Shown piece by piece: positions 5,261-20,340 of a stretch of 20,429 nt of DNA. The translations under genes and the position numbers were made by a program. Below the pieces are notes generated by a model. It made no database searches and was not told the DNA's origin. It saw only the letters and a program-made list of their open reading frames with translations. Location of the stretch: NCBI GenBank assembly GCA_026770585.1, contig MU647002.1, positions 51,902-72,330 of the forward strand, in the 5' to 3' direction. Source of the DNA: Baffinella frigidus (taxonomy: Eukaryota > Cryptophyceae > Cryptomonadales > Baffinellaceae). How positions within the stretch are numbered: position 1 is the stretch's first letter; each line of letters opens with the position of its first letter.

Positions 5261-5263
5261 GGC

Positions 5264-6465: not shown

Positions 6466-6604
6466 TCGAGAATAATATTAATAATAATAAGAAGAGGGGG
6501 TTTAGGGTCTAGGGTGTATTTACACCTGGTTTATGGGCCAGGATCACTCTAGTCTAGGCCTGAGTAATAAAGAAGGAGAAGAGGATATACCACACAAAAG
6601 GCTT

Positions 6605-8085: not shown

Positions 8086-8109
8086 TTGCAGTTGAGTAAT
8101 CCAAAAGTC

Positions 8110-8442
8110 ATGAGATTCTCCAAAAGTCCTCCAAAAGACCCACAGGTTATTGTTGAGCCACCCCAGCAAGGCATCCAGAGGGCGCGCGCGGGAAGAGCCC
8201 GCACGAGCCCCCCGAGTCTCACTAAGGTGGTTCTTGTCAAGCGCCTGTCCGAGGAGGCCTCGCGGCCCGGAGCCCTCGGCGAGAAGCTCAAGAAGCGGCG
8301 CAAGGAGGGTCCGACACCCAAGGCTTTCCCCCAGGTTGAGATGGGCGGAGCAGGGGCGGTCGCTGGGGGCGATTCTGGCAAAACCAGCGACCCTGTAGTG
8401 CAAGCGGCTCTCCACAAGGAGGATGGCAACGGCAAGCTCAAG
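8110..8442 (+). CDS. exon 1 (start uncertain): basic N-terminus and first TPR helix
   Basis: The open frame runs to AAG|GTTCAC at 8442. The 3' part (8335-8442) ends AALHKEDGNGKLK, the first half of TPR1. K103 and N107 occupy the first two carboxylate-clamp positions. Possible starts are ATG 8110, an acceptor at 8145 (CCCACAG|GTT), or ATG 8341 just after CCCCCAG. I chose 8110 because the codons from 8206 on are strongly GC-ending and encode a charged stretch (VVLVKRLSEEASRPG, GEKLKKRRKEG) that looks coding. The basic KLKKRRK could act as a nuclear signal or as part of an organelle presequence. This is the only exon before the right edge with no ghost copy in the window. Confidence 0.6.
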
Positions 8443-11400
8443 GTTCACCTCGACCCCAATCGATGCCTTTCCCGCCCCAGGCTTCCATACCCAGGCCAGA
8501 AGCCCAAAGCCGATTGTGCTCACGCCGCGCAAGCTGTACGCTTCTTGCTTCTCGACTGCCGTTCAGGATCTGTATTGCACACACCGGGCCTAGGATGTAC
8601 AGCTCGAAGCCGCACCGAATCCGAGGTGGGCCTGTGCCAACACAGGCCAGCTGCCCCCCCCTCACGATTGTGCTCCGCATGTCGCAGGTTGGCAACTTTG
8701 CGGAAGCTGAGCGGCAGTACACGCTGGCGATCCAGCTGGACCCGAGCGTGGAGGCCTACTTGACCAACCGCGCGCTGGTAACCTAGTTCTGCCGAACTCG
8801 GGTTGCCCGTCGACTATTCTCAAGAGAGAATATTCTCACGCTGGGTTTGCGATATAAATTCGTCAACTTTGGCGCGGGAAAGAGCCCGGGTGTGCCGACA
8901 TAGACTGAGACAGAGCGATAAACTCCAACCCCCTCAGCTGGGCCTGTGCGTGGAAACCGACTGGACCAACCGCGCGCTGGTCGCCCCCCCCTGATTTGTA
9001 CTGGAGGTCGCCGGAATCCGCTCTATTCTCAAGTTGACCCCTAAACCCTAACCCCCAAGCACAAACCTGAAACCCTAGACCCTGGACCCTGAACCCTAAA
9101 CCCCAAAACCTAAACCCTAAAACCGAACCCCTAAACTTCAGACCCTAAACTCTGAACCCTGAGCACAGACCCTAAACCCTAACCACCCCGGCCTACTCCG
9201 CGGATATCCTGTCGAGCGATCCGCCAGTGAAACCTAACCCTAAACCATACCCCCTACCCCCTAGCCCTTTACCCCTAACCCCGAACACCCGAACACCCGG
9301 GTGCCCCCCCGCACGAGGCTTGTACCAGAGCTTTTTAAACCCTAAACCCTAAACCCTAAACCTGGAGAGCTCCCTGTGGACACCATTCCGGATATTTGAC
9401 TCCGGATATTTGACATTCCCGGATGTTCCCGGATATTTAACGTTCGTGGTAGACATAACAGAAAGACGCTGTTTCGCCAGCTCAACCCCAGGCTCGTGTG
9501 TGGGGCCTCTCTCTCTCTCTCGAGGTCCGCCAGTGAAACCCAACCCTAAACTCTAAACCCAACCCCCAAACTACAAACCACAAAGCAGAAACCACAAACG
9601 ACACACCACACACCACACACCACACAGAACAAATCCAGGTGCGCACAATGCTCAACAACACCGGAACATGGAGTTGTTCCTACGGATATCCTAACTGATT
9701 CTTGGATGCTCAGCCACCAAGAATCCCTTCGTAGCCCGCTGTGCGGACCCCAAACCCTCAACGACCCAACCAGGTGCGCACAAAGCTCAACAGCACAACC
9801 GGAGCCGTAGAGGACTGCAACTCACCCCCCACCCTCCACCCTCCACCCTAAATCTAGCTCTGCCTCACTCGGGTTGACCAACTATTCTCAAGTTGACAAG
9901 CTGGATGTGCGGTACTAATCCGTCAACTTTGGAGCGAAAAAGAACCTGGGCTCACACAAATTCTGAGACCAAATAGACTGAGACAGCTAGTAAACATTAC
10001 ACAACACACCCCAGGTGCGCACAAAGCTCAACAACACAGCCGGGGCCGTAGCGGACTGCAATGCGGCGCTTCTCCTGAACCCCACCTCGGCGCGCGCGTT
10101 CGGGCGGCTCGGCGCCGCGCACTTCTCGGGAGGTGATTTTGTACCAGGGAGGGAATAAGTAGTTTGTAAGCGGTGGTTTTATACCAGGAAAAGAGTATAT
10201 AATGGATTTGTAGGTGATATAAGTACATGTAGTGCCCGGTTTGAGGATCGCAACGCGGCGCTTCTCCTGAACCCCACCTCGGTGCGCGCGTTCGGCCGGC
10301 TCGGCGCCGCGCACTTCTCGGGAGGTTAGTAAGTTATAACGGATATATTTTGTACCAGGAAGGGAATGAATAATAGATGTATAGGCGAAATAATGGATGT
10401 ATAGGCGATATAACTATATGTAGTGCCCGGTTAGCTCGCCAACGGTGACTGGGCCCCGCGCTTTTCTCCGGAGGTTGCAAAGAGAACCCTAGAACCCTGA
10501 TACCGCACCCCTCAACCCTGAATCCTAATTCCGTATCCTTATCCCAGACCCCAACCCCCAAAACCCAGAACCCAAAACCCTAACCCCCAACCCCGAATCC
10601 CTAAACCCCAAACCCCAAACCCTAGCAGATTTAGTGTTTGGGGGTTGGGGTTTAAGGTTGAGGGAGCACGTAGGGCGCCGTGTTGCCCGAGAGCGCCAGC
10701 AGCAAGACGTCCGGAACCCTAACCCACAGAATGCTACACCAGGCAATTTCGCGGAGGCCTACCGCAAAGCCCTGGAACTCGACACTGACTGAAACTGCTA
10801 GAGTTGAAGATTTGCAATGTGTGTGGTGTTGTGTGTGTGGTTGAGGTCTCGCAGCCGCGCGCGCCAGGGCCTCTAGCAGGACGTCAGCGAGAGAGAGAAA
10901 GAGATAGATAGATAGATAGAGAGAGAGACAGCGTGAGAGAGAGAGAGCGAGCGAGAGAGAGACAGAGACAGAGATCCGGCACCCTCACCCCGCCGCCCCC
11001 CACCAGGCAACTTCGCGGAGGCAGCGGAGGCGTACCGCAAAGCCCTGGAGCTCGACAAGGGCAACGCTACGTACGCCCAGGTGACAGCCCCACACCAGCC
11101 CTACGGTCGAACAGCCCCAAGGTTGAACAGCCCCACACCAGCCCTAAGGTTGCCCCAAATCAGCCCTAAGGTCGAAGAGCCCTAAGGTTGAACAGCCCCA
11201 TACCAGCCCTACGGTTGCCCCTAACCAGCCCTAAGGTTGAAATGCCCCACACCAGCCCTACGGTCAAACAGCCCTAAGGTCGAACTTTGACAGCCCTAAG
11301 GGCTGTTCAACCCTGCAAGGTTCAACCCTGCAAGGCCGTGGGTTTAGGGTGTTGGGTTTAGGGGTTGGGGGTTGGGGGTTGGGGGTTGGGGGTTGGGGGT

Positions 11401-14400
11401 TGGGGGTTGGGGTCGGGGTTAGTGTTTGATAGGTTATTTCCCTCGCGCCCGCCCCTCGGTTCCCTACAGCCAAGCGCTGCCTTACACCCTAACCCACGCA
11501 CACCCATCACAAAAATACCACCCGCGCGCCATGTGCACCAAGTGCGTTGTTCGTGCGTTGATCCAAACCCTAACCCTGCGCACGGGCCGAGGCCCTGTGG
11601 AGCGCCGCTTCGAGGGTATCCGTGAAGCCCCCGGTGGCTGCTCAGTGGACCGCCAGACGCTGCCTCACACCCTCGCCCTACGCGCAGGGCCTCGAAGCGG
11701 CGCGCCCCAGGGCTTCGGCTGCCGCCGCCGGGGGGAAGGTGTGGAACCCTACACCCTAAACCTTAAACCCCATACTCCAAACCCTCACCGTAAACCCTAA
11801 ACCCTAAACTCCATTCCCTAAAACCTCCCTAAACCCTCAACCCCAAAGCCCAAACCCTAAACCCTGAACCCCAACCCCTAAACCCCAACCCCTCAACCCT
11901 AAACCCTAAACCCTAAACCCTAAACCCCAAACCCTAAACCCTAAACCCTACCATGGTAAACCTCAAACCCTAAACTCTAAGCACCATGGTAAACCCCAAA
12001 CCCCAAACCCTAAACCCTGACCCCTCCGGAACCAGCATGGCGCAGCGGGGAACCCTAAACCCTGACCCTGAACCCTAAACCCATACTCCAAGCCCTAACC
12101 CTGAACCTTATACCCTCAACCCTACACCCTCAACCCTGAACCCTAAACCCTAACCCCCAAATCCTAAACCCCAAACCCTAAACCCTAAACCCGAACCCCT
12201 CCGGAAGCAGCATGGCGCGGCGGGGAGCACGGGCAACGCGTCCGACACGGCCGATGCCGTGAAGGAGGTAGACCCTAGACCCTAGACCCTAGACCCTAGA
12301 CCCTAGACCCTAGACCCTAGACACTATTCCCTAGACCCTAGACACTATACCCTAGACCCTGGACACTAGACCCTAGACCCTAGACCCTAGACCCTAGACC
12401 CTAGACCCTAGATACTATTCCCTAGACCCTAGACACTAGACCCTAGACCCTGGACACTAGACCCCAGACCCTAGACCCTAGACACTAGACGCTAGACACT
12501 AGACGCTAGACCTGAAACGGGCAGCGCGTCTGAGACGGTCGATGCCGTGAAGGAGGTGCTCACCGAACCACTAAACCCTTCAAGGTTTAGTGACCCTAGA
12601 CACTAAATCCCAAAGGTTTAGTGACCCTAGAGACTAAATCCTAAGCGCGTACGAGACGGCTGATGCCGTGAAGGAGGTGCTCTCACCGAACCCTAGAACC
12701 CTCAAACCTAATCCCTCGCTAGTATGGCCCTAGACCCTAGACCCTAGACCCTAGACCCTAGACCCTAGACCCTAGACCCTAGACCCCAGACCCTAGACCC
12801 TAGACCCTAGAACCGAAACGGGCAGCGCGTCTGAGACGGTCGATGCCGTGAAGGAGGAGCTCACCGAACCACTAAACCGAAATCCTAAACCGTAAACCCT
12901 CCTAGTACGTGAAGGTCCCCCGCCGAACCCTATAATTCTCAACCCGAATCCCTTGCTAGTATGCCCCTAGACCCTAGACCCTAGACCCTAGACCCGAGAC
13001 CTTAGACCCTAGACCCTAGACCTTAGACCCTAGACCCGAAACGGGCAGCGCGTCCGAGACGGCTGATGCCGTGAAGGAGGAGCTCACCGAACCCTAGAAC
13101 CCTCAACCCTAATCCCTCGCTAGTATGCCCCTAGACCCTAGACCCTAGACCCTGGACACTAGACCCTAGACCCTAGACGCTAGACGCTAGACACTAGACG
13201 CTAGCCCCGAAACGGGCAGCGCGTCTGAGACGGTCGATGCCGTGAAGGAGGAGCTCACCGAACTTCTAAACCTAAATCCTAAACCGTAAACCCTCCTAGT
13301 ACGTGAAGGTCCCCCGCCGAACCCTAAAACTCTCAACCCGAATTCCTCGCTAGTATGCCCCTAGACCCTAGACCATAGGCCCTAGACCCGAGACCCGAGA
13401 CCCTAGACCCTAGACCCTGGACACTAGACCCTAGACCCTAGACCCTAGACCCTAGACCCTAAACCGCCGATGCCGTGAAGGAGGTCCCTCGCCGAACCCT
13501 CAAACCCTCAACCTCGATCCCTCACTAGCCAAAACCCCTAAACCCCAAACCCTAAACCCTAAACTCTAGCACCTTGGACCTTAATTTCTTGCTAGTATGC
13601 CCCTGAACTCTAAACTCTAAACCCTTGTTCCCAAACCCTAAACTCTAAACTCTAAACTGTGAACACGAAACATGGCAGGTGCTCGCGAAGATGGGCGGGG
13701 CCGCGGAGGTCATGCGCAAGCACCAGGTGCTTCCCCCTCTATCCCTCAAGTGCCCAGTAGGCTCACACGCCCTACCGTAGGGCGTATGATGGGCAAGCAC
13801 CAGGTGCGCGCTTCGCCCCTGGTTCCTAGTTATCATAGTTCATGCACAAACACAAATGGTTTGTACCTATTTCTACGAAATTCCTGTGCCAGTTTTGCCA
13901 AACCATCGGAAAACGTCACTCGTAGTGCAAAAAAGCGCGCTTATCCCTCTATAAATGGCGGCATGCGTCCCTAAACGGAGGGCGTGCCTCCATCAACGGA
14001 GGTTTCACATCCGCAAATTTTCAACCCTGATCGGAAACCTGATCTGAAGCCTGATCCATGAAACCTGATCCTGAAACCTGAAGCCTACCCTGGTGCAGGA
14101 GCAAGCTGCGGCAAAGCGCGCCAACGAGAGCATCAACGACGCCGCCCCCGATCTCGGTACACCCGAAGCCCTAAAGGGAAACGGGGCGTGTTCTTGTGGG
14201 CCCAAAATTATAGGGCCCACAATTGTATTATTTGGGCCCAAAATGGAATTATTGGGCCCAAAAGAGCCCACCATTGTTTTATTTTATTGTTTGCACCTAG
14301 TGCCTCCATACCACTCAGCAGCCACCGGGGCCTTCGGGAATCGGTCCATCGAAACGAGGAGGCTTCCTCATCTAGTGTCTAGGGGGGGGGGGTAGGGTCT

Positions 14401-17400
14401 GGGGTCTAGGGTCTAGGGTCTAGGGTCTAGGGTCTAGGGTCCAGGGTCCAGGGTCTAGGGTCTAGGGTCTAGGGTCCAGGGGCATACTAGCGAGGGATTA
14501 GGGTTGAGGGTTCTAGGGTTCGGTGCCGCGAAGCGCGCCACCGAGAGGCATCAACGACGCCGCCCCTGACCTCGGTACCCCGGAACCCAAGAACCCGAGA
14601 ACCTGAAACCCGAAGCGCGAGATGCCTCTATGCCTGCAAAACACCCGAACCCCGAAAACTGAAACCCGAAACCCGAAACCCGAAACCCGCAGCCTGGAAC
14701 TCGAAACCGGGAATCCGAAAACCGAAACCCCGAACCTGAGCCTCCGCCTCCATAAACCCTACACCCTAACCCTACACCCTAAACCCTAAACCCTACACCC
14801 AGGGGTTGGGATGGAGCGTTCAAAGCTGGCGTGGGACCTGTTCGAGGATGGCAAAGCCGACTACGCCGTTGCCTTTCAGGTGTCACTACCACTTAATTCG
14901 CATTATAAACTAGTACGTTTATACGTATAAACTTAGTACTGTGCTTATAAACTTAGTACTGTGTACCCTTATAAACACAGTATTGTGTGCGGGGTTGTAA
15001 GTTTATGAGAATGCGCGTACTAAGTTGTACACAGCGCTAAGTTTATAAGGCGACGCGGGCGTGGGACCTGTTTGCGGATGCCGACGCCGACTACGCCGTT
15101 GCCTTTCAGGTGCGTCCGTACGACTTAATTCGCATTATAAACTAAACTAATACATGCATACTTATAAACTTAGCACTGCGTACCCTTGTAAAGTTAGTAC
15201 TGTGTACGAGGTGCTTTTCAGTACTAGTTTACAAGTACTAGTTTACAAGTGTACTAGTGGCATGGTACTAGTTTGAACAAGCGTACCCGTGTCGTAGTAC
15301 TAGTTTATTATTCTACTAGTGTCGTGCTACTAGTTTTGTCGTGCTACTAGTTTATAAGTGTAGCGGGATGCTATGCAGGTGCGTGCGAGGGAGGAAAGTA
15401 AGTGATGCAGAGAGAGATGAAAGAAGAAACTTTCTTCTGTGAAGAATCGAAGAAAGGTTTCGGAGCTTTGACACGTTTTGAAGAAAAGATTCTTCTTTAC
15501 CGGAATCCGGTAGCGCCCGAAGGCGGGCGGATTCTATCTTCCAACTGACATTCCCAAATCCTCGAATCGAGGATATGGGTACGTAGGATATCGCAACGAT
15601 TCGAAAACACAGTGTCATCTTACGGGTAGGGGGGTGCATGTTGTCGTCGACCAAGACCTAAGATAGCATAACCCTGAGATGGACGCAAAACCCTTCAGAT
15701 CCTCCCGAATCCGGGCGCGGTCCTACCGCCTCGACGATGCCTCGGCCGGGAAATTAACACAGAGAATGTATTAATTAATTTCTGGCCTGCCATCCAGACT
15801 TACTACACAATTGGATCATACTGGTAAGGCGTGGCTGATTCCCGCCTACATAGGTGCAAGGGAGCAAGTCGGAGAAAGAAGCGGCGGTGAATGCCGCGCA
15901 CGAGCGCACGATTGCCTCACTGATTGGCTACCTGGTTGAGGCTCAAACCCCAACACCCCAAACCCCAAACCTCAAACCAGGTGCATGGGAGCGAGAAGGA
16001 GAAAAAAACGGCGGCGGTGAATGCGGCGCACGAGCGCACGATTGCCTGTACCTGGTTTAGGGTTTAGGCCCAAACCCTAAACACACTAAACCCTTAACGC
16101 GCCTAGGCGCCAGGGAGCGAGAAGGAGAAGGACGCGGCGGTGAATGCCGCGCACGAGCGGACTGCGCTCAAGTGTCTTGAGCTCGCGCGCACCAACGGCG
16201 GCATCTACAACAAGGTCCTTCTATTATTCTGTACCACGAATCGGCCACTTTTGGAGAATGTTTGGTAGTGGTGGTACGAATGAAAGTCAATTTGTGGATG
16301 AGCGCACCGCGCTGAAGTGCCTGGCACTCGCGCGGACCAACGGCGGCATCTACAACAAGGTTTCGCCCTAAACCCTAAACCCTAAACCCTGAACCCTAAA
16401 CCCTAAACCTCACACACTAAACCCTACACCCTAAACCCTTAACCTCAAACACTAAACCCGTCAACCCGTCAACCCTCACCCAGAGTTGTTCTGTCCGGGA
16501 CTCGCAACCTGCGTCAATTACAGCTACTTAGGGACGTTTTTCCCGATATAGGACTCACCCTTGGAGCCCTTTTCCCCAGAGGCGGGCCCATCCAGGACCC
16601 GGTCCTCCAACATATTACCTCTCAGTAATCTGACGCCAGAAGTGGACGAATTCCCCCTGAAATCCAAGAAATTGACTTTTGCGATTGCTCCTCGTCTGAT
16701 CTTGGGTGGCTGGCTTCGGGGCCCGTAACCTGCTCGAATTTCCCCAGGCTCCAAACCCTAAACCCTCAACCCTCACCCCAAACCCAAAACTCAACACCTA
16801 AAATTATACCCCACAAGGTGTCGCAGCTCGAAACCCTAAACCCTCAACCCTGAATCCTCACCCTGAAACCCTGATCCCTAAAACAGGCGGCGCAGTTCGT
16901 AGCCTCCCTCCAGGGCGGGGCGGGCGACCGGGGGTAAACCCTAACCCCTAACCCCTAAACCCTGATTTAGGGGAAACCTCAACCCCTGAACCCTAAACAC
17001 TAAACCCTAACCCCTAACCCCTAAACCCCAACTTCTAAACCCTCAACCCTAACCCCTAACCCCTAACCCCTAACCCCTAAACCCCAAACCCTAAACCTTA
17101 AACCCTAACCCCTAAACCCTAAACTCCAAACCCTCAACCAGGGTGCCGAAGCAGTACGTGAAGGCGCTGGCGGTGCTCACGGACCAGGCGCCCTTTCGGC
17201 CGTTCGCCCAGATGGAACAGGTGCTTGTCTTGGGGTTTAATGTTCGGAGGATGGAGGGGAGGAGGGTTTTGGGGGGAAGGGGGTTTAGGGTTTTGGGGAA
17301 GCGGGGTGAGGGGTGGGGGGTGAGGGGGGAGGGGGGAGGGGGTTGCCGAAGCAGTATGTGGAAGTGCTGGAGGTGCTCACGGACCAGGCGCCCTTCCGCC

Positions 17401-20340
17401 CCTTCGCCCGGATGGAACAGGTGCTCATATAACCTTTCCTGAACCCTAAAATCTTTTACTTTTGACGCCCGAAAGTTAACGCCCGAAAGTCACCTCGAGG
17501 CAATTTTTGGTGGAAGGTCTGGGGAAGGAAGGGGATCAGCGTTTCAACCCTGACCCTAAACCCTACAACCTAATCCCTGCATCCCTAAAGCTAAACCCTA
17601 AATCCTAAAACCTGAACCCTAAACCCTAAAACCCAAACCCTAAACCCCAAACCTCAAACCCTAAACCCTACAACGCTAAACCCCTACAACCTAAACCCTA
17701 AACCCGTGCGGCGTTTTTCTGGTAGAACGCTACAGCCCTCAAACCTCACCCCAAACCCCAAACCCAGGTCCTGGTGGAGGATCTGGGCAAGAAGGGGAGT
17801 GAGCTGTTCAGCTCGATCGACACGCAGCCGATCGCTGCGGCCTCTCTCGCGCAGGTGTGTAGTCAGGGCGCATGGTGGTGGTGTAGGGTTCAGGGCGTTT
17901 GGGTTTGGGGATCAGGGGGCCAAGGGACTTAAAGTGTAAGGTTTAGGATCTGGGGAAGAAGGTGAGCTGTTCAGCTCGATCGATGCGGAGCCGATCGCTG
18001 CGGCCTCTCTCGCGCAGGTTTGGGGTGGATGGTTTGGGGTTCAGAGTGGAGAGTGGAGGGTGGAGGGTGGAGGGTGGAGGGTGGAGGGTGGAGGGTGGAG
18101 GGTGGAGGGTGGAGGGTGGAGGGTGGAGGGTGTGCAGGGTGCAGGGTGTTTTGTGGTGTAAGGTGTATGGGTTTAGGTTTAGGGGTTTAGGGGTTGGGGT
18201 TGAAGGTTGAGGGTTCGGGGGTTAGGGGCGTGAGCTGTTCAGCTCGATCGATGCGCAGCCCATCGATGCGGCCTCTCTCGCGCAGGTTTCGGGTGTAGGG
18301 TGTAGGGCTTAAGGTTTAGAGTTGCTACTGCAAGCCCCAAACCTTAGACCCTGTAAACCCTAGACCCTAGACCCTAGACCCTGTAAACCCTACACCTCAC
18401 GTCCTAAACCCTAAACCCTGCAAACCCTAAACCCCAAACCCCGCACCCTAACCCATAATCCCCAACCCAGGTACACAAAGCGAAGACGAATGCGGTGCAG
18501 GACGTGGCGGTCAAAATGCTCTACCCTCAACCTCAAAACCCCGACCTTGGCGTTAACAAAGGCCTCTCTCACAACAGGCGCCGTCGCGCAGCTTCGAACG
18601 GCCGTCTCACACGTTATCCACTATCCCTTAAGTGGTGAGGAGGCTCATACACCCTACGGTAGGGTCCGAAGACCTGCCTAGGGCGAGTTAGGGTGAATAT
18701 TCACCCTATGGCCACTTAAGGGACATTCAGTCGTCTTATACTCTATCCGCGAACTCAGGTGCACAAAGTCAAGACGAAGGAGGGGAAGGACGTCGCAGTC
18801 AAAATGCTCTACCCTCGACCCCAAAACCTCGACCTTGGCGTTAACAAAGGCCTCTCTCACACCACACAGCGGGCTACGAAGAGATTTTCGGCCCATTTTT
18901 GGCCGAATTTCCGTTACCTTGTCCGTAGGAACCCCCCTATGCCCCTACGGGTTGCCTACCGTAGGGTCCTAGGTCTTATCGCTGAGGGATTATTCAGGAA
19001 TCCCTTCGAAGTCCGCGGTGAGGACAGGCGCCGTCGCGCGGCCGTCTCATACATTATCCACTATATACGGCCGTCTTACACTCTATCCGCGAATCCAAAG
19101 CTATCCACTATATACGGTCGTCTTATACTCTATCCGCGAATCCAGGTGCACAAAGCCAGGACGAAGGAGGGGGAAGACGTCGCTGTCAAGATGCTCTACC
19201 CCGGCCTCCGCAAGAACACCGCGTAAACCCCAAACCCTAAACCCCAAACCCTCAACCCCAAACCCTAAACCCTGAACCCTGAAACCTCAACCCTGCACCC
19301 TGAACCCTGAACCCTAAACCATGAACCTGCGTAAAACCCTAAACCCGAAACCTTTATGATCTATCGGCTGCTGGAAATCCAGATCTTTATTACCCTAGAC
19401 CCTAGACCCTAGACCCTCGACCCTAAACACCGAAAAATAAACACTAAACATGCTCTACCCGTGCCTGCGCAAGAACACCGCGTAAACCCCAAACCCTTAT
19501 CCCTGAACCCTGAAACCTCAACTCTGAACCCTGAACCCTAAACCATGAACTCTGAACCCTAACCCGTTATGTGTCTGTCTTCCAGCTAGCGGCTGCTGGA
19601 AATCCAGATCTTTTTTGCCCTAGACCCTATACCATAGACCTTAAACACCGAACACTAACCACTAAACGCTAAACACTAAACACTAAACACTCACCCCCAA
19701 CCCCCAAACCCCAAACCCCAATCCAGTTCGGAATGCTCTTTCTTCGAGACTATGGACAAGCAGAACCCCCCCCGGGTTTCGGGTTTCGGGACTAGGGTTC
19801 CGGGTTGCCACTCAAACCCTCTACCCTGGATATCAAACCCCCAAGCCCAAAACAGGTCGGACTTTTCCGTCTTCGAGACTATGGGCAAGCAGATCAAGCC
19901 GGGTGGCTTCGACCTTGAGTGGTTCTCCCCTACACCCTGAACTCTACACCCTACACAGTACACCATCAACACCCAACCCTTGACCCAAGGCTTAGAGCTT
20001 CGACCTTGAATGGTGATCGTGAATGATCTTTGATCTTGACACCACACCCTAGCCCCCTCAACCCTCAACCCCTAACCCCAACCACCCAACCCTTACCCCT
20101 CACCCCTAAACCCTTCACTCGAAATCCGACACCCTTAACCCTTAACCCTTAACCCTCAACCCTCAACCCTAACCCATCACCCCCCCCTCCCCCTAAACCA
20201 TAAACCATAAACCCTGAACCATAAACCCCAACCCCTTTACCGTAAACCCCAACCCCCAAACCTCAAACCCAAACCCCGAAACCAGGCTGGTGCGCGACTT
20301 CAAGGAGGCCCTGGCGATGGAGCTTGACTTGCAAACCGAG
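8110..20340 (+). CDS. TPR co-chaperone domain joined in frame to an ABC1/ADCK-type kinase (spans exons and introns; 3' end beyond window)
   Basis: This is a sixteen-exon model inferred by similarity and phase. The exons sum to 1425 nt (475 codons), and every donor/acceptor pair is GT-AG with matching phase. Residues about 95-205 are three TPR motifs with an Hsp70/Hsp90 carboxylate clamp. Residues 206-277 form a low-complexity linker. Residues 278-475 are the N-terminal half of an ABC1 (UbiB/ADCK) atypical kinase, a family linked to quinone and lipid metabolism in mitochondria and plastids. The catalytic core is not in the window. No targeting peptide is evident if ATG 8110 is the start; residues 11-80 are Arg/Lys/Pro-rich. 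If the gene is really two, the break would fall at exon 8 or 9 (ATG at 14811). The order and frame support one gene, but only transcript data would settle it. Confidence 0.6.
8688..8777 (+). CDS. exon 2: TPR1 helix B and TPR2 start
   Basis: Acceptor GTCGCAG|GTT, donor CTG|GTAACC, 30 codons, phase 0/0. It reads VGNFAEAERQYTLAIQLDPS followed by VEAYLTNRAL. This is a canonical TPR: the G-N-F, A-(x)-Y and A-I-x-L-D-P pattern, then the N-R-A of the next repeat. N138 is the third clamp residue, 31 residues after N107, as in Hop TPR1. It joins exon 1 to give KEDGNGKLK-VGNFAEAE, a normal TPR1. A degraded 3' copy lies at 8935-8979. Confidence 0.85.
8783..8925. repeat. intronic repeat R3, copy 1
   Basis: From CTAGTTCTGCCGAACTCGGG it runs through GACTATTCTCAAG, GCGATATAAATTCGTCAACT and TTGGCGCG to TAGACTGAGACAG. 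The same series appears at 9852-9995 (CTAGCTCTGCCTCACTCGGG, AACTATTCTCAAG, ACTAATCCGTCAACTTTGG, TAGACTGAGACAG). The first copy precedes the exon 2 ghost and the second precedes exon 3. This is consistent with one original intron segment duplicated along with exon DNA. Confidence 0.65.
8935..8979 (+). pseudogene. ghost of exon 2 (3' half)
   Basis: 45 nt match the end of exon 2: CAGCTGG.CC.G.GCGTGGA, then ACCAACCGCGCGCTG with the following GT donor. It would read QLGLCVETDWTNRAL. The 5' half is missing and there is no acceptor adjacent, so it cannot replace exon 2. Confidence 0.7.
8980..9660 (+). repeat. intron 2 heptamer tract and R4 copy 2
   Basis: This contains degenerate CCCTAAA/CCCTGAACC units (9040-9190, 9230-9360, 9537-9560). 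The diverged R4 repeat (9361-9487; CCGGATATTTGAC twice, then AGACGCTGTTTCGCCAGCTC), a (CT)n run (9510-9521) and a CACACCACA microsatellite (9601-9628) also lie here. GTGAAACC(T/C)AACCCTAAA is repeated at 9226 and 9533. Confidence 0.6.
9637..9826 (+). pseudogene. two 5' ghosts of exon 3
   Basis: CCAGGTGCGCACAATGCTCA (9636) and CCAGGTGCGCACAAAGCTCA (9770) copy the acceptor and first codons of exon 3. The second continues to GAGCCGTAGAGGACTGCAAC (about 9802) before breaking into C-rich DNA. Both keep the acceptor but lack the rest of the exon and any donor in register. Confidence 0.7.
9655..9752 (-). mobile_element. MITE family copy 3, truncated and inverted
   Basis: On the minus strand this reads CCGCACAGCGGGCTACGAAG, GGATTCTTGG, CAAGAATCAGTTAGGATATC, CGTAGGAACAAC. 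These match the left end and early interior of the other family members; the distal half is missing. It lies inside or next to the first exon 3 ghost, so it entered or was copied after that duplication. Confidence 0.6.
10015..10132 (+). CDS. exon 3: TPR2/TPR3, clamp residues R168 and R172
   Basis: Acceptor CCCCAG|GTG, donor GGGAG|GTGATT, 39 codons plus one base. It reads VRTKLNNTAGAVADCNAALL, then LNPTSARAFGRLGAAHFSG. This is the second half of TPR2 (A-G-A-V-x-D-C) and the first helix of TPR3 (A-x-G-R-L-G-A-A), very like SGT and Hop. R168 and R172 fall at the fourth and fifth clamp positions (spacing 30 and 4). The phase-1 end is completed by exon 4 (G|GC = Gly). Confidence 0.88.
10139..10474 (+). 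pseudogene. ghost copies of exon 3 in a tandem exon+intron duplication
   Basis: 10244-10324 repeats exon 3 from GATCGCAACGCGGCGCTTCT to TTCTCGGGAG with its GT donor. It reads NAALLLNPTSVRAFGRLGAA and onward, with only a few differences, but lacks the 5' third and an acceptor. A more decayed third copy lies at about 10436-10472. The AT-rich intron piece (TTTTGTACCAGGGA.., GATATAA.TA.ATGTAGTGCCC) is duplicated with it. The unit is about 190 bp, which shows the duplications spanned exon and intron together. Confidence 0.8.
10475..10742 (+). repeat. intron 3 heptamer tract
   Basis: C-rich degenerate CCCTAAA/CCCCAAA units (10480-10625) switch to a short G-rich stretch (10630-10665). A GC-rich segment GCACGTAGGGCGCC..CGAGAGCGCCAGCAGC (10666-10705) resembles CGCGCCAGGGCCTCTAGCAG at 10861. 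It may be an exon remnant, but I cannot assign it. Confidence 0.5.
10743..10789 (+). pseudogene. ghost of exon 4 with deletion and in-frame stop
   Basis: CACCAG|GCAATTTCGCGGAGGCCTAC matches exon 4 with its acceptor, but nine bases (GCAGCGGAG) are missing. After GAACTCGACACTGAC it hits TGA instead of continuing to a donor. Its phase is compatible with exon 3, so inclusion would truncate the protein. Confidence 0.8.
10801..10975 (+). repeat. GT-rich and (GA)n/(GATA)n microsatellites
   Basis: TGTGTGTGG runs (10818-10840) are followed by GAGAGAGA/GATAGATA/GAGCGAGC purine tracts (10888-10975) shortly before exon 4. A purine run this close to an acceptor is unusual, since a pyrimidine tract would be expected. 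The actual pyrimidine tract is the short CCCCGCCGCCCCCCACCAG. Confidence 0.85.
11007..11080 (+). CDS. exon 4: TPR3 second helix
   Basis: Acceptor CCACCAG|GC, donor CCCAG|GTGACA. After two bases completing Gly181 it reads NFAEAAEAYRKALELDKGNA followed by TYAQ. This is a textbook TPR helix B and the start of the capping helix, as in SGT proteins (A-x-x-Y-x-K-A-L-E-L-D). It ends in phase 0. Confidence 0.88.
11086..11330 (+). repeat. tandem CCAGCCCTAAGGTTGAACAG minisatellite in intron 4
   Basis: About eight variants of ACCAGCCCTA(A/C)GGT(T/C)GAACAGCCCC follow one another. They end at the palindrome ACAGCCCTAAGGGCTGT (11290-11306) and a duplicated GTTCAACCCTGCAAGG (about 11308 and 11321). CCCTAAGG is a one-base variant of the heptamer, so this may be a telomere-like repeat that grew into a longer unit. 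Confidence 0.75.
11338..11425 (+). repeat. G-rich (GGGGGTT)n tract in intron 4
   Basis: GGTTTAGGGGTTGGGGGTTG and repeats run through 11420 on the coding strand, unlike the C-rich orientation of most introns of this gene. Runs of four to five G in close series could form G-quadruplexes in the pre-mRNA. Confidence 0.75.
11460..11660. pseudogene. partial direct and inverted copies around exon 5
   Basis: 11469-11490 (AAGCGCTGCCTTACACCCTA) is a direct copy of the sequence upstream of exon 5 (GACGCTGCCTCACACCCTCG, 11656). 11585-11615 on the minus strand reads CCTCGAAGCGGCGCTCCACA then GGGCCTCGGCC, an inverted copy of exon 5 itself. The inverted copy can pair with exon 5 across a loop of about 75 nt. 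Confidence 0.7.
11688..11738 (+). CDS. exon 5: TPR capping helix and Ala-rich linker
   Basis: Acceptor CGCGCAG|GGC, donor GGGAAG|GTGTGG, 17 codons, phase 0/0, reading GLEAARPRASAAAAGGK. Joined to exon 4 it gives ATYAQGLEAAR, the typical end of an SGT-type TPR domain. The Ala/Gly tail starts the linker. Codons are GC-rich. Confidence 0.7.
11739..12210 (+). repeat. intron 5: CCCTAAA heptamer tract with exon 6 ghost
   Basis: This is almost entirely CCCTAAA and its variants (CCCTCAA, CCCCAAA, CCCTGAA). CCATGGTAAACC appears twice (11951 and 11984). At 12020-12051 the sequence CCCCTCCGGAACCAGCATGG then CGCAGCGGGG copies the acceptor and first codons of exon 6 before reverting to heptamers. Confidence 0.8.
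12211..12267 (+). CDS. exon 6: linker segment
   Basis: Acceptor GGAAGCAG|CAT, donor AAGGAG|GTAGAC, 19 codons, phase 0/0, reading HGAAGSTGNASDTADAVKE. This is a low-complexity, helix-compatible linker with no family match that I recognise. The exon is called because it is phase-compatible with both neighbours and is the only intact member of a set of copies. A fragment of it recurs six more times downstream. Confidence 0.55.
12268..13510 (+). repeat. (CCCTAGA)n higher-order repeat carrying six exon 6 ghosts
   Basis: Runs of CCCTAGA, a one-base variant of the telomere heptamer, alternate with exon 6 fragments (..GGCAGCGCGTC(T/C)GAGACG.. then GATGCCGTGAAGGAG). These fragments have GATGCC at 12541, 12662, 12842, 13065, 13236 and 13469. 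The pairs 12842/13236 and 13065/13469 are about 395-405 bp apart and share CCTCCTAGTACGTGAAGGTC and CTCGCTAGTATGCCCCTAGA. A unit of about 395 bp has therefore been duplicated in tandem. Ghosts read GSASETVDAVKE or GSASETADAVKE, so the frame survives, but most have GAGGAG instead of the GAG|GT donor. Confidence 0.85.
13511..13678 (+). repeat. degenerate CCCTAAA tract before exon 7
   Basis: Heptamer variants (CCCTAAA, ACTCTAA) include one more TTGCTAGTATGCCCCT (13587), the landmark of the higher-order unit. The immediate acceptor region, AACACGAAACATGGCAG, has little pyrimidine. Confidence 0.7.
13679..13726 (+). CDS. exon 7: linker helix
   Basis: Acceptor ATGGCAG|GTG, donor CACCAG|GTGCTT, 16 codons, phase 0/0, reading VLAKMGGAAEVMRKHQ. 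It is amphipathic and probably helical, with no family assignment. It is supported by the clean AG..GT borders, the GC-rich codons and a 3' ghost at about 13788-13803 (ATGGGCAAGCACCAG|GTG). Confidence 0.6.
13727..14098 (+). other. intron 7 with exon 7 ghost and mixed sequence
   Basis: It contains the perfect palindrome CGCCCTACCGTAGGGCG (13769-13785) directly before the exon 7 ghost. A non-heptamer stretch (13810-14000) carries CGGAGG repeats (AAACGGAGGGCGTGCCTCCA, ACGGAGGTTT). It ends in CCTGATC/GAAACCTGA repeats (14025-14085). CCTACCGTAGG is the motif found inside the MITEs, so the palindrome may be a MITE remnant. Confidence 0.55.
14099..14156 (+). CDS. exon 8: linker/ABC1K N-terminal helix
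   Basis: Acceptor TGGTGCAG|GAG, donor ATCTCG|GTACAC, 19 codons plus one base, reading EQAAAKRANESINDAAPDL. The next exon completes Gly (G|GG), giving APDLGVGMERSK. If the donor is not used, the frame stays open to about 14392, so this could instead be the last exon of a separate TPR gene. A frameshifted ghost lies at 14523-14574. Confidence 0.6.
14190..14275. repeat. GGGCCCAAAAT short repeat cluster in intron 8
   Basis: TGGGCCCA-type hexamer palindromes occur at about 14198, 14213, 14235 and 14255, separated by AATTATA/AATTGTA. Adjacent units can form several alternative small hairpins. Two units share GGGCCCAAAATTA and GGGCCCAAAATGG. Confidence 0.6.
14380..14525 (-). repeat. inverted copy of the exon 6 higher-order repeat
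   Basis: On the minus strand this reads ACCGAACCCTAGAACCCTCA, ACCCTAATCCCTCGCTAGTA, TGCCCCTGGACCC and (TAGACCC)n. These are the same landmarks, in the same order, as 13086-13160 on the plus strand. The block is thus an inverted duplicate about 1.3 kb from its source and abuts the exon 8 ghost. The G-rich orientation on + explains the GGGTCTAGGG tract. Confidence 0.8.
14523..14574 (+). pseudogene. ghost of exon 8 with +1 frameshift
   Basis: GCCGCGAAGCGCGCCACCGA then GAGGCATCAACGACGCCGCC and CTGACCTCG|GTACCC match exon 8 from its fourth codon to the donor. An extra G in GAGAGGCATC breaks the frame, and no acceptor precedes it. Confidence 0.8.
14575..14802 (+). repeat. CCCGAAA/CCCTAAA heptamer variants before exon 9
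   Basis: Runs of GAAACCCGAAACCC (14600-14735) change to CCCTACACCCTAAACCC (14755-14800) and end at the CACCCAG acceptor. CCCGAAA is another single-base heptamer variant. Different introns of the gene are dominated by different variants. Confidence 0.7.
14803..14879 (+). CDS. exon 9: start of the ABC1-kinase-like region
   Basis: Acceptor CACCCAG|GG, donor TTTCAG|GTGTCA, 2 + 25 codons. After the split Gly277 it reads VGMERSKLAWDLFEDGKADY followed by AVAFQ. The position and character (helical, R-S-x-x-x-W, D-Y) fit the segment that precedes the HER..GG motif in ADCK1-like kinases. ATG 14811 could be an independent start if the kinase is a separate gene. A copy at 15059-15109 is discussed separately. 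Confidence 0.75.
14880..15375 (+). repeat. tandem duplication of exon 9 plus intron; ACTAGT-rich tract
   Basis: 15059-15109 repeats exon 9 from GCGTGGGACCTGTT to GCCTTTCAG|GTG, reading AWDLFADADADYAVAFQ. The following intron start, ACTTAATTCGCATTATAAAC, is duplicated too (14891 and 15122), so the unit is 230 bp. The only nearby acceptor for the copy (AAG|GCG, 15050) gives phase 0, incompatible with exon 8. It is therefore probably a ghost. The rest is built of TATAAACTTAGTACTGTG and ACTAGTTT palindromic units (15220-15360). Confidence 0.75.
15376..15853 (+). other. intron 9, mostly single-copy sequence
   Basis: A purine-rich region has interleaved GAAGAA/TTCTTC pairings (15415-15510). It is followed by CTACCGGAATCCGGTAG-like symmetry (15498-15513) and an inverted repeat GGCCGGGAAATTAA..TTAATTTCTGGCC (about 15743-15788). 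No exon candidate was found. The sequence just before the ghost at 15854 is unremarkable apart from the TAG acceptor. Confidence 0.45.
15854..16047 (+). pseudogene. two 5' ghosts of exon 10
   Basis: 15854-15917 (VQGSKSEKEAAVNAAHERTI) and 15981-16047 (starting GTGCATGGGAGCGAGAAGGA) copy the first two thirds of exon 10 behind TAG and CCAG acceptors. Both end at the same point, after CGCACGATTGCCT, and run into heptamer or TACCTGGTT sequence. They share that breakpoint with each other and not with exon 10, so one ghost was probably copied from the other. Confidence 0.8.
16107..16214 (+). CDS. exon 10: ABC1K segment up to the KxGQ lysine
   Basis: Acceptor GCCTAG|GCG, donor AACAAG|GTCCTT, 36 codons, phase 0/0. 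It reads APGSEKEKDAAVNAAHERTA, then LKCLELARTNGGIYNK. The block H-E-R-x-A-x-x-x-x-x-L-x-x-x-N-G-G-I-Y-x-K is the hallmark lead-in to the KxGQ motif of ADCK1-like ABC1 kinases, and it ends on the motif lysine (K338). Two 5' ghosts precede it and one 3' ghost follows. Confidence 0.85.
16215..16296 (-). repeat. fragment of dispersed repeat R4 in intron 10
   Basis: CTATTATTCTGTACCACGAA and TCGGCCACTTTTGGAGAA (16222-16260) are the reverse complement of R4 at about 6690-6730. The fragment sits between exon 10 and its 3' ghost. Confidence 0.6.
16297..16359 (+). pseudogene. 3' ghost (or alternative 3' half) of exon 10
   Basis: GATGAGCGCACCGCGCTGAA to ATCTACAACAAG|GTTTCG matches the second half of exon 10. 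It reads DERTALKCLALARTNGGIYN then K, with mostly silent changes and an intact donor. There is no AG acceptor in register immediately upstream, so inclusion would need a different 5' boundary. Its coding quality is high for a relic. Confidence 0.75.
16360..16886 (+). other. intron 10: heptamers flanking a single-copy block
   Basis: CCCTAAA variants (16366-16480 and 16747-16880) surround a non-repeat block (16481-16745). No exon was found in that block, despite short ORFs on the minus strand. At 16818-16831, AAG|GTGTCGCAGCTCGA resembles the first 14 bases of exon 11 (GCGGCGCAGTTCGT) behind an AG. It is probably a small ghost. Confidence 0.5.
16887..16933 (+). CDS. exon 11: KxGQ-region (KAAQ) segment
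   Basis: Acceptor AAAACAG|GCG, donor CGGGG|GTAAAC, 15 codons plus two bases, reading AAQFVASLQGGAGDR with a split Gly354. Joined to K338 it forms K-A-A-Q-F-V-A-S-L, the KxGQ site of ABC1 kinases with Ala replacing the usual Gly. The following V-P-K-x-Y (exon 12) is the normal continuation. Confidence 0.8.
16934..17141 (+). repeat. intron 11, entirely CCCTAAA/CCCCTAA variants
   Basis: Practically the whole 208-bp intron, from GTAAACCCTAACCCC to CCCTCAACCAG, is made of telomere-like heptamer or octamer variants. Even the donor (GTAAACC) and acceptor (AACCAG) read as modified repeat units. Confidence 0.85.
17142..17220 (+). CDS. exon 12 (copy a): ABC1K V-P-K-x-Y segment
   Basis: Acceptor CAACCAG|G, donor GAACAG|GTGCTT, 1 + 26 codons, reading VPKQYVKALAVLTDQAPFRP then FAQMEQ. 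It matches the P-x-E-Y-x-x-x-L-x-x-L-x-D-x-A-P-x-x segment that follows KxGQ in ABC1 kinases. Exon length is not a multiple of three (79 nt), so it cannot be spliced together with copy b without a frameshift. Confidence 0.88.
17221..17338 (+). repeat. G-rich spacer between the two exon 12 copies
   Basis: The 118-nt spacer is G-rich on the coding strand (GGGGGGAAGGGGGTTTAGGG, GGGGTGAGGGG, GGAGGGGGGAGGGGG). The introns on either side of the exon 12 pair are C-rich. It could form G-quadruplexes in RNA, and it leaves copy b with a purine-rich acceptor context. Confidence 0.75.
17339..17420 (+). CDS. exon 12 (copy b): possible mutually exclusive alternative exon
   Basis: This is a second complete copy. 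After one base and a Gly codon it reads LPKQYVEVLEVLTDQAPFRP then FARMEQ, with donor GAACAG|GTGCTC. Many differences from copy a are silent, and five change an amino acid (V-L, K-E, A-V, A-E, Q-R). An AG at 17337-17338 gives a phase-compatible acceptor, though in a poor G-rich context. It is unlike the other ghosts because both ends and the frame survive. It could be a recent relic or a true alternative to copy a. Confidence 0.5.
17421..17767 (+). repeat. intron 12: short unique stretch, then CCCTAAA variants
   Basis: 17440-17545 carries a duplicated AC(G)CCCGAAAGT (17466 and 17481). GGTCTGGGGAAGGAAGGGGA (about 17516) faintly resembles exon 13. The rest is CCCTAAACCC/CCTACAACC to the CAAACCCAG acceptor. 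Confidence 0.6.
17768..17854 (+). CDS. exon 13: ABC1K Ala-rich loop
   Basis: Acceptor AACCCAG|GTC, donor GCGCAG|GTGTGT, 29 codons, phase 0/0. It reads VLVEDLGKKGSELFSSIDTQ then PIAAASLAQ. P-I-A-A-A-S-(L/I)-x-Q is the alanine-rich loop that replaces the protein-kinase glycine loop in ABC1 kinases (AAAS at residues 403-406). D-L-G-K-x-x-x-E-L-F-x-S-I/F-D is standard for ADCK1-like members. Two ghosts follow. Confidence 0.93.
17945..18017 (+). pseudogene. ghost of exon 13 with 4-nt deletion
   Basis: GATCTGGGGAAGAAGGTGAG then CTGTTCAGCTCGATCGATGC to CTCGCGCAG|GTTTGG. Loss of four bases after AAGAAG shifts the frame. By chance it also makes AAG|GTGAGC, a near-ideal donor. It is preceded by TTTAG, so the first part could be spliced as a short exon, but no correct protein would result. 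Confidence 0.85.
18018..18225 (+). repeat. (GGAGGGT)n minisatellite and G-rich tract in intron 13
   Basis: A perfect GGAGGGTGGAGGGTGGAGGG array (about 18050-18131) is followed by GGGTTTAGG/GGGGTTGAAGG units. The coding strand is G-rich, as between the exon 12 copies. The tract lies exactly between ghosts two and three of exon 13. Confidence 0.9.
18226..18285 (+). pseudogene. second ghost of exon 13 (3' two thirds)
   Basis: GTGAGCTGTTCAGCTCGATC then GATGCGCAGCCCATCGATGC and GGCCTCTCTCGCGCAG|GTTTCG. The 5' part including D-L-G-K is absent. It shares the GATGC variant with the first ghost (the parent has GACAC), which implies it was copied from the ghost and not from exon 13. Confidence 0.85.
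18286..18470 (+). repeat. heptamer tract with orientation switch
   Basis: GGGTGTAGGG units up to about 18325 change to CCCTAGA/CCCTAAA units from 18335 to the ACCCAG acceptor at 18470. The direction of the telomere-like repeat thus reverses within a few tens of bases. Confidence 0.65.
18471..18577 (+). pseudogene. ghost 1 of exon 14 (5' two thirds)
   Basis: CAACCCAG|GTACACAAAGCGAAGACG, reading VHKAKTNAVQDVAVKMLYPQ. It keeps the VAVK lysine but diverges from exon 14 after CTCTACCCT. It continues into CTCAAAACCCCGACCTTGGC and GTTAACAAAGGCCTCTCTCA, sequence shared only with ghost 2. No donor is present. Confidence 0.8.
18624..18723. mobile_element. 100-bp MITE-like element with TCCCTTAAGTGG termini
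   Basis: Perfect 12-bp inverted termini (TCCCTTAAGTGG at 18624-18635, CCACTTAAGGGA at 18712-18723) enclose two further palindromes, ACCCTACGGTAGGGT (about 18651-18665) and AGGGTGAATATTCACCCT (18690-18707). The sister duplicate at 19060-19085 runs from ATTATCCACTATA directly to CGGCCGTCTTACACTCTATC without it. The element was therefore inserted after the duplication, or lost from the other copy. Confidence 0.75.
18759..18861 (+). pseudogene. ghost 2 of exon 14 (5' two thirds)
   Basis: AACTCAG|GTGCACAAAGTCAAGACG, reading VHKVKTKEGKDVAVKMLYPR. It ends at the same breakpoint as ghost 1 and carries the same following sequence (CCTCGACCTTGGCGTTAACA). VHK, VAVK and M-L-Y-P are intact, but L-R-K-N-T and the donor are missing. 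Confidence 0.8.
18862..19020. mobile_element. MITE family copy 4, with paralogous empty site
   Basis: The left end CACACAGCGGGCTACGAAGA and right end GAATCCCTTCGAAGTCCGCG flank GGCCGAATTTCCGTTACCTT, GTCCGTAGGAACCCCCCTAT and TTGCCTACCGTAGGGTCCTA. In the sister duplicate the sequence GCCTCTCTCACAACAGGCGC (18563-18582) is uninterrupted. Here GCCTCTCTCAC and ACAGGCGCCG (19023) are separated by about 160 bp. The pair defines the insertion site to within a few bases. Confidence 0.85.
19021..19145 (+). repeat. intron 13 end: duplicated CTATCCACTATATACGG units
   Basis: TATCCACTATATACGG(C/T)CGTCTTA(C/T)ACTCTATCCGCGAAT occurs twice in tandem (about 19055-19095 and 19100-19142) before the TCCAG acceptor of exon 14. 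A related CGTCTTATACTCTATCCGCG precedes the acceptor of ghost 2 (18732-18751). This shows that the acceptor region was duplicated with the exon. Confidence 0.8.
19146..19222 (+). CDS. exon 14: ABC1K VAVK lysine segment
   Basis: Acceptor ATCCAG|GTG, donor ACCGC|GTAAAC, 25 codons plus two bases, reading VHKARTKEGEDVAVKMLYPG then LRKNT. Q-V-H-K-A across the exon 13/14 junction and V-A-V-K-M-x-Y-P are core ABC1K motifs. K424 is the ATP-binding lysine by analogy with VAIK. It is the only one of three copies with a 3' end and donor, so it is taken as the functional exon. Confidence 0.92.
19223..19855 (+). repeat. intron 14: duplicated exon end plus heptamers, exon 15 ghost
   Basis: Positions 19451-19487 (ATGCTCTACCCGTGCCTGCG then CAAGAACACCGC|GTAAAC) repeat the 3' end of exon 14 with its donor. 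The following intron text (CCCTGAACCCTGAAACCTCA, GGCTGCTGGAAATCCAGATC) is also duplicated (19270-19390 and 19505-19608). The unit is about 265 bp. CTGGAAATCCAG is a short palindrome in both. At 19727-19766 a 5' ghost of exon 15 (ATCCAG|TTCGGAATGCTCTTTC, then TTCGAGACTATGGACAAGCA) precedes CCCCCCC and GGGTTTCGGG. Confidence 0.8.
19856..19921 (+). CDS. exon 15: ABC1K segment before ELD
   Basis: Acceptor AAACAG|G, donor GAGTG|GTTCTC, 1 + 21 codons + 2, reading SDFSVFETMGKQIKPGGFDL then E. The split codons give Ala435 (GC|G) and Trp457 (TG|G). The pattern D-x-x-x-x-x-x-x-x-x-x-x-x-P-x-F-x-x-x-W-L is that of ADCK1-like kinases between VAVK and ELD. A 5' ghost lies upstream and a 3' ghost downstream (about 19999-20012, TTCGACCTTGAATG|GTGATC). 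Confidence 0.88.
19922..20285 (+). repeat. intron 15: exon 15 3' ghost and CCCTAAA variants
   Basis: The ghost GCTTCGACCTTGAATG|GTGATC at 19998-20012 keeps a donor. It is followed by ATCTTTGATCTTGACACCAC, and then heptamer variants (CCCTTAACC, CCATAAACC, CCCCAAACC) up to the GAAACCAG acceptor. Confidence 0.75.
20286..20340 (+). CDS. exon 16: ABC1K ELD (ExD) segment, last exon in window
   Basis: Acceptor AACCAG|G, donor ACCGAG|GTAACC, 1 + 18 codons, reading LVRDFKEALAMELDLQTE. W-L-V-x-D-F-x-x-x-L-x-x-E-L-D is the conserved ABC1K helix carrying the ExD motif (E469, D471). It ends in phase 0, and the catalytic half of the kinase must lie to the right of the window. Confidence 0.9.

What the first reader, a model, noticed from the sequence alone, without database searches (positions are those of the whole stretch)
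8688..20340. Nearly every exon is shadowed by degraded 'ghost' copies of itself
Of sixteen exons in the model, fourteen have one to seven partial copies in the adjoining introns. There are 5' pieces that keep the acceptor (exons 3, 10, 14, 15), 3' pieces that keep the donor (2, 10, 13, 14, 15), frameshifted copies (8, 13) and an internal stop (4). There is an inverted copy (5), a six-fold expansion (6) and one nearly intact copy (12). Shared breakpoints and variants (the exon 10 and exon 14 ghosts; GATGC in both exon 13 ghosts) show that ghosts are copied from ghosts. Such systematic per-exon duplication and decay is not a pattern I know as a standard gene feature. It suggests continuous local duplication through the intronic heptamer arrays. 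It would also create many decoy splice sites.
Basis: partly seen in the sequence, partly recalled or inferred. Interest (0 to 1): 0.88.

Follow-up and report, generated by a model that had tools for sequence, protein, structure and literature searches.

The report
Half-exon tandem duplicates in algal introns
In this algal genome, probably a cryptophyte's, many genes carry worn, partial copies of their own exons in the neighbouring introns, apparently left by short tandem duplications that began inside an exon and ended in an intron; this offers a natural test of how cells tell real exons from half-exons.

Summary
The window carries an intact 15-exon stretch (E2-E16) of a TPR + ABC1-kinase gene. 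Thirteen of 15 exons have a nearby copy scoring above each of 29 control pieces from the same genome; 25 copies, 80-96% identical, were listed.

It is not an isolated pseudogene. Copies occur in a CCT-alpha gene (6 of 17 exons), in other ABC1/CCT genes and in kinesin genes on 3 of 22 contigs. Intensity varies: some loci have almost none. The genome has 11 matches to the phycoerythrin family PF02972, so it is probably a cryptophyte; Baffinella sp. CCMP2293 is a guess.

What is new is a polarity rule. 5' pieces lie upstream of the exon and 3' pieces downstream: 22 of 22 in the window, 41 of 43 overall. Tandem duplications (median unit about 210 bp) with one breakpoint inside the exon must give this. 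Whole-exon copies are depleted (1 seen, 13.6 expected of 38), suggesting that selection removes spliceable copies and tolerates half-exons.

I rate it a known process at unusual extent; nine paper searches found no description.

The parts
8688..8777 (+). exon E2 (TPR)
8935..8979 (+). E2 ghost, 3' piece, downstream, GT kept, 38/45
9639..9661 (+). E3 ghost, 5' piece, upstream, AG kept, 22/23
9774..9820 (+). E3 ghost, 5' piece, upstream, AG kept, 43/47
10015..10132 (+). exon E3 (TPR)
10250..10324 (+). E3 ghost, 3' piece, downstream, GT kept, 72/75; unit 192 bp with intron part 71% alike
10751..10784 (+). E4 ghost, inner piece, upstream, 32/34; frame runs into a stop just after it
11007..11080 (+). 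exon E4 (TPR)
11586..11615 (-). E5 ghost, inverted, 27/30
11688..11738 (+). exon E5
12211..12267 (+). exon E6
12517..12555 (+). E6 ghost 1, 3' piece, GT kept
12646..12676 (+). E6 ghost 2, 3' piece, GT kept
12818..12856 (+). E6 ghost 3, 3' piece, GT lost
13041..13079 (+). E6 ghost 4, 3' piece, GT lost
13212..13250 (+). E6 ghost 5, 3' piece, GT lost
13463..13483 (+). E6 ghost 6, 3' piece, GT kept
13679..13726 (+). exon E7
13789..13803 (+). E7 ghost, short 3' piece followed by GT; seen only with the splice flank in the query
14099..14156 (+). exon E8
14524..14574 (+). E8 ghost, gapped 3' piece, GT kept, 45/51
14803..14879 (+). exon E9
15055..15109 (+). E9 ghost, 3' piece, GT kept, 49/55; intron part 68% alike
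15856..15909 (+). E10 ghost, 5' piece, upstream, AG kept, 47/54
15987..16039 (+). E10 ghost, 5' piece, upstream, AG kept, same inner end, 46/53
16107..16214 (+). exon E10
16300..16359 (+). E10 ghost, 3' piece, GT kept, 52/60
16887..16933 (+). exon E11 (no copy by score)
17142..17220 (+). exon E12 (ABC1)
17344..17420 (+). E12 ghost, nearly whole, 68/77, GT kept, AG lost
17508..17546 (+). E13 ghost, weak 5'-side piece, upstream, 32/40
17768..17854 (+). exon E13 (ABC1)
17945..18017 (+). E13 ghost, 3' piece with a 4-base gap, GT kept, 69/77
18224..18285 (+). E13 ghost, 3' piece, GT kept, 57/62
18471..18526 (+). E14 ghost, 5' piece, upstream, AG kept, 45/56
18759..18814 (+). E14 ghost, 5' piece, upstream, AG kept, 50/56; alike to the previous ghost beyond the exon part too (18464-18576 / 18752-18864)
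19146..19222 (+). exon E14 (ABC1)
19447..19481 (+). E14 ghost, 3' piece, GT kept, 31/35
19728..19764 (+). E15 ghost, 5' piece, upstream, AG kept, 31/37
19856..19921 (+). exon E15 (ABC1)
19997..20012 (+). E15 ghost, short 3' piece followed by GT; read by eye, below score threshold
   Evidence: sequence
20286..20340 (+). exon E16 (ABC1); no copy by score, N gap soon after

Best explanation
The ghosts are products of repeated short tandem duplications of genomic DNA, median unit about 210 bp, many with one breakpoint inside an exon and the other in the adjoining intron. A unit that spans the acceptor leaves a truncated 5' piece upstream of the intact exon; a unit that spans the donor leaves a truncated 3' piece downstream. 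The intact exon stays under selection and serves as a frozen reference, while the half copy drifts, so exon pieces stay recognisable after the intron part of the unit has faded. Once two direct copies exist, further exchange or slippage between them multiplies ghosts from ghosts. Copies of a whole exon with both splice sites would be spliced in and are removed by selection; half-exons with one site are tolerated. Shown: the copies, their polarity, the depletion of whole copies, partial intron homology, occurrence in other genes. Inferred: tandem duplication as the DNA event, selection as the cause of the depletion, the frozen-reference effect, tolerance through exon-defined splicing.
For: Polarity 41 of 43 direct partial copies (22 of 22 in the window, 19 of 21 elsewhere; binomial p 2e-10 if independent); non-redundant and units up to 700 bp, 25 of 26. 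Whole copies: 1 seen vs 13.6 expected of 38 (P 4e-8), non-redundant 1 vs 9.1 of 27 (P 5e-5) under random breakpoints. The intron part of the unit is alike above random intron pairs (p<0.05) for 11 of 24 ghosts, e.g. E3 71% over 106 columns beside a 96% exon part, E9 68% over 174 beside 89%. Direct orientation in 44 of 45 copies; reversed-exon control 0 from 55 exons. Mismatches by codon position 18/379, 35/379, 64/377: position 2 is not the most conserved, as free drift of the ghost plus synonymous drift of the exon would give. Kinesin matches with stops lying downstream as 3' pieces (C112, C506).
Against: 13 of 24 ghosts show no significant homology in the intron part, including well-kept copies such as E12 and E10-3'; this needs fast intron decay or later rearrangement. 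In E3 the exon part (96%) is better kept than twofold-faster intron decay would predict. Copies are not independent (E6 family, nested ghosts). Two copies break the rule: an inner fragment in L026, 630 bp down, and a 27-bp match 2.1 kb away in L024. Several copies called 5' or 3' are inner fragments (e.g. E4). Exons outside the window and L046 were delimited automatically from Pfam cores. Duplicates are sparse in L025, L030, L047, L028 (1.2-2.1%). No RNA or long-read data; the assembly has N gaps.
Confidence: 0.75

Rival explanations
1. Whole exons were duplicated in tandem through exchange between intronic heptamer arrays, and the extra copies then lost one half.
For: Intronic heptamer arrays are abundant; one nearly whole copy, E12; some ghosts begin or end beside heptamer-like sequence (sequence; not tested for enrichment).
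Against: Later decay would trim either end on either side of the exon; observed polarity is 41 of 43. Local duplication does not track tandem-repeat content over 15 loci (rho 0.06): L026 has 7% masked and 18% duplicated bases, L025 39% and 1.2%.
Confidence: 0.12
2. The copies are functional: alternative exons or regulatory half-exons kept by selection.
For: Third-position excess of mismatches (64 of 117); splice dinucleotides mostly kept (12 of 15 GT, 7 of 8 AG); the exon part is better kept than the intron part.
Against: Nearly all copies lack one splice site; gaps in E8, E10 and E13 copies and a stop after E4; position 2 mismatches exceed position 1 (35 vs 18); the excess at position 3 is also expected from the exon's own synonymous drift.
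Confidence: 0.08
3. Assembly artefact: allelic or repeated segments placed in tandem by a short-read assembler.
For: Window begins with poly-G and ends at an N gap; if this is the Baffinella assembly it is Illumina-only AllPathsLG (passages).
Against: Copies differ by 4-20%, up to six per exon, are truncated at different points, and obey one polarity in several genes; allelic misplacement would give one extra copy of whole segments with flanks. If anything, near-identical recent copies would be collapsed.
Confidence: 0.06
4. Exon pieces were inserted into nearby introns by templated repair or reverse transcription, not by tandem duplication.
For: 13 of 24 ghosts lack detectable intron homology; one inverted copy, E5.
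Against: Such insertion has no reason to put 5' pieces only upstream and 3' pieces only downstream; 11 of 24 carry intron sequence of the unit.
Confidence: 0.07

Closest known systems
Tandem exon duplication and internal gene duplication
   Same: Direct, local duplication of exon-bearing DNA, a common process (Gao and Lynch 2009 as cited in PMC4974935, passages).
   Different: Known cases are mostly whole exons that add coding sequence or alternative exons; here nearly all are half-exons, non-coding in effect, on most exons of one gene and in several other genes.
[quoted passage not shown] potato RdRp case, PMC4974935)
   Same: Tandem duplication with exon and splice-site sequence; the potato case also duplicated an intron-exon structure (passages).
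   Different: Here no new intron is evident: the ghost keeps its own splice edge, with intron-like sequence beyond it, and does not abut the neighbouring exon.
Introner elements and intron transposition
   Same: Repeated sequence concentrated in introns.
   Different: Copies come from the adjoining exon and lie within about 1 kb as a rule, not dispersed near-identical elements.
Pseudoexons / decoy splice sites
   Same: Unused sites with fair consensus beside real exons.
   Different: Here the decoys derive from the real exon beside them.

Membership tests
Tandem duplication of intron-exon boundary segments | copies in direct orientation and close by | tested here: met
   44 of 45 direct; median distance about 210 bp for units up to 700 bp
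Tandem duplication of intron-exon boundary segments | truncated copy on the side that a tandem unit with one exon breakpoint requires | tested here: met
   41 of 43
Tandem duplication of intron-exon boundary segments | the intron part of the unit is duplicated with the exon part | tested here: inconclusive
   significant in 11 of 24 ghosts, not in 13
Tandem duplication of intron-exon boundary segments | unduplicated ancestral state in a sister genome | not testable with these tools
   no relative of G000 is held
Intron gain by tandem duplication (AGGT model) | copy of the upstream exon's end abuts the next exon, and copy of the next exon's start follows the first donor | tested here: not met
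   by reading ghost flanks: acceptor-side copies have their own AG after intron-like sequence, donor-side copies run into intron (sequence)
Tandem (alternative) exon duplication | whole exon copy with both splice sites | tested here: not met
   1 whole copy of 44 direct ones, acceptor lost
Tandem (alternative) exon duplication | copies used in transcripts | not testable with these tools
   no RNA data
Introner elements | near-identical elements dispersed over many genes | tested here: not met
   for 12 of 15 window exons the best match among 29 control pieces scores 44 or less, against 33-139 locally for 13 exons; the high control scores are E10 (63) and E11 (58); no genome-wide search of ghosts was made

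The most novel reading that the evidence does not exclude
In this cryptophyte, introns grow genome-wide by continual tandem duplication of exon edges. Most exons of affected genes stand among half-exons with intact-looking acceptors upstream or donors downstream, and the cell reads through them because a splice site without its partner at exon distance is ignored. The genome would then be a natural saturation experiment on exon definition: single-sited copies survive, two-sited copies are purged.
Probability: 0.45. Interest if true: 0.75.

Novelty: new variant of a known kind. Interest (0 to 1): 0.58.

Why it matters
If it holds genome-wide, one genome offers very many natural tests of what makes an exon an exon: copies of the same splice site, in the same gene, with and without a partner site. 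It also points to a route of intron lengthening and genome growth by duplication of exon edges, and warns gene finders, since near-perfect decoy exons lie beside real ones. The exon as a frozen reference makes it possible to date local duplications that would be invisible in intron sequence alone.

Tried and rejected
Rejected: isolated pseudogene (open 364-aa frame; ghosts in other genes); chance; heptamer-array exchange as the main route; the AGGT intron-gain model (flanks read). Considered and dropped: Cymbomonas as host (its long-read assembly is 914.3 Mb in 35,945 scaffolds, passages).

Not reached: SSU rRNA (RF01960), HSP70 (PF00012) and dynein (PF12774) searches of G000 never gave an answer; the relatives of the protein could not be sought. 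No sister genome, RNA or raw reads. Junction microhomology and enrichment of heptamers at intron-side breakpoints were not tested formally. Random sampling was weak: of 12 random 10-kb stretches (L032-L043) 8 read wholly N and one was 94% masked or N; the other three, L032, L036 and L037, were all rich in local duplicates but are unannotated. In one search the direct and inverted self-hits were counted with dispersed repeats left in.

Paper searches for a description of such ghosts or of this genome; none found in what they listed. Most subscription papers are not in that library. PMC10675990, PMC9756366 and PMC4974935 were seen as passages only; other papers only as listings. Rogers 1989, Hellsten 2011 and Gao and Lynch 2009 are known here only as cited in PMC4974935. 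That PF02972 is confined to cryptophytes is recalled.

A correction: an earlier count gave 13/16 donors and 8/9 acceptors; one search shows 12 of 15 and 7 of 8, used here.

Full report
What is there. The window is G000:C671:51902-72330, in an unnamed 382-Mb assembly of 1364 contigs. From 8688 to 20340 it holds E2-E16 of a gene whose joined exons give 364 aa without a stop, with TPR repeats and the first part of an ABC1 atypical kinase domain (PF03109, residues 255-364, E 1.4e-31). The first exon was not established, and the gene runs on into an N gap. Introns are AG/GT and rich in C-rich heptamers.

The copies. A local alignment search lists 25 copies of pieces of 12 exons within 3 kb, 80-96% identical, 24 direct and one inverted. 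Against 29 control pieces of 3 kb from other loci of the same genome, 12 of 15 exons (exon alone) and 13 of 15 (with 6-bp flanks) score higher locally than in any control. E11 and E16 do not. Controls were high for E10 and E11 (63 and 58); I did not trace those matches, which may be paralogues. Reversed exons gave no hit from 55 exons.

Not only this gene. In a CCT-alpha gene (L046, 17 exons, open frame) 6 of 17 exons pass the same test. Over 55 exons in 11 loci, 23 exons in 8 loci have a copy, 45 copies in all; outside the window it is 11 of 40 exons, and one of those, in L024, rests on a 27-bp match 2.1 kb away. In the kinesin family search, overlapping neighbouring matches, most of them with stops, appear on 3 of 22 contigs (C112, C506, C123). 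The share of unmasked non-exon bases in direct duplicates within 1 kb ranges from 1.2% (L025, L030) to 29.5% (L036), the window gene 27.8%. So the feature is spread through the genome but uneven, and this window is one of its strong cases.

The polarity rule. Of 43 direct partial copies, 22 are 3' pieces downstream and 19 are 5' pieces upstream; two break the rule. In the window it is 22 of 22. With one copy per exon and side and units up to 700 bp it is 25 of 26 (that cut drops the L024 exception). If a tandem unit starts in an intron and ends inside the exon, the first copy is a truncated 5' piece upstream and the second is complete; a unit that starts inside the exon and ends in the next intron gives the mirror case. 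Free insertion of exon pieces, or whole-exon copies trimmed later, has no such handedness.

Whole copies are missing. With random breakpoints and the observed unit lengths, 13.6 of 38 copies should contain the whole exon; one does (P 4e-8; non-redundant 1 against 9.1 of 27, P 5e-5). That one, E12, has lost its AG. Selection against copies that would be spliced in is my reading; a mechanistic preference for exon breakpoints is not excluded.

Intron parts and drift. For 11 of 24 ghosts the intron part of the unit is also alike (p<0.05 against random intron pairs of the gene); for 13 it is not. Where it is, it has drifted more than the exon part (E3: 71% beside 96%; E9: 68% beside 89%). Free drift of both intron copies against drift of one half-exon beside a conserved exon explains about a twofold difference; E3 exceeds that. 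Mismatches fall 18, 35 and 64 on codon positions 1, 2 and 3 of about 379 each, as expected if ghosts drift and exons change mainly silently, though some past constraint on ghosts is not excluded. In the window gene 58.2% of exon bases and 27.8% of unmasked non-exon bases lie in local duplicates; the latter includes the ghosts themselves, so exon sequence is over-represented. I read this as detection against a frozen reference; preferential duplication of exon edges is the alternative.

Decoy sites. The expected GT is present in 12 of 15 donor-side copies and the AG in 7 of 8 acceptor-side copies. The three GT losses are all in the E6 family. There is thus no sign that single decoy sites are purged, which would fit splicing that requires both sites of an exon. 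No RNA data were available.

Heptamers. Over 15 loci the tandem-repeat share does not track the duplicate share (rho 0.06; for the window the repeat share is that of the whole window). The arrays are therefore not shown to drive the process; whether intron-side breakpoints favour them was not tested.

Host. PF02972, the phycoerythrin alpha/beta family, has 11 matches in G000 and none in 14 control genomes; I recall it as a cryptophyte family. The Arctic cryptomonad Baffinella sp. CCMP2293 is described as 534.5 Mbp, 10,880 scaffolds, half of it in 344 scaffolds down to 439.3 kb, GC 53.9%, Illumina with AllPathsLG (PMC9756366, passages). Contig sizes seen here (C1 2.12 Mb, C303 463 kb, C291 433 kb, C376 369 kb) and the N gaps fit the top of that assembly, but 382 Mb in 1364 contigs does not equal it; the name is a guess. 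The word intron does not occur in that paper's main text.

Verdict. Real, and best explained as serial short tandem duplication with one exonic breakpoint, sieved by selection. The process is of a known kind; its extent and its half-exon signature are, as far as my nine searches of an incomplete paper library go, not described.

Noticed in passing
window 8688-20340; L046 546-8386; L024, L028, L029, L030: C-rich heptamers (CCCTAAA and variants) sit mainly on the sense strand of genes: 251 to 35 in the window gene, 183 to 7 in CCT-alpha, 28 to 0, 42 to 8, 21 to 2 and 11 to 0 in other genes with approximate limits; L026 and L031 have too few within the gene, and L031's 10 kb as a whole is opposite (5 to 149). 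They may act as pyrimidine tract or branch-point signals.
   Followed up: partly
window 1-8600: Heptamer orientation is reversed (16 to 86), which may mean a divergent gene upstream; three copies of a segment of about 100 bp lie at 2821, 3077 and 3298, 85-91% alike.
   Followed up: no
window 6743-6904 and 18856-19016: An 80%-identical element shared by the upstream region and an intron, perhaps a dispersed repeat; TACCGTAGGG-bearing sequence recurs in L046.
   Followed up: no
window 4141-4300 and 4681-4760: Near-perfect inverted repeats visible in the sequence, such as CCTACCGTAGGC arms around a short loop, possibly small foldback elements.
   Followed up: no
G000, e.g. L025 and L030 against L029, L036, L037: Loci fall into rich (15-30% of unmasked bases in local duplicates) and poor (1-5%) ones, with L031 at 8.7% between; what sets them apart is unknown and is not tandem-repeat content.
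   Followed up: partly
window exon E10-E11 junction (16214 / 16887): The usual KxGQ motif of ABC1 kinases (recalled) reads K-A-A-Q here, a possible divergence or a different exon choice.
   Followed up: no
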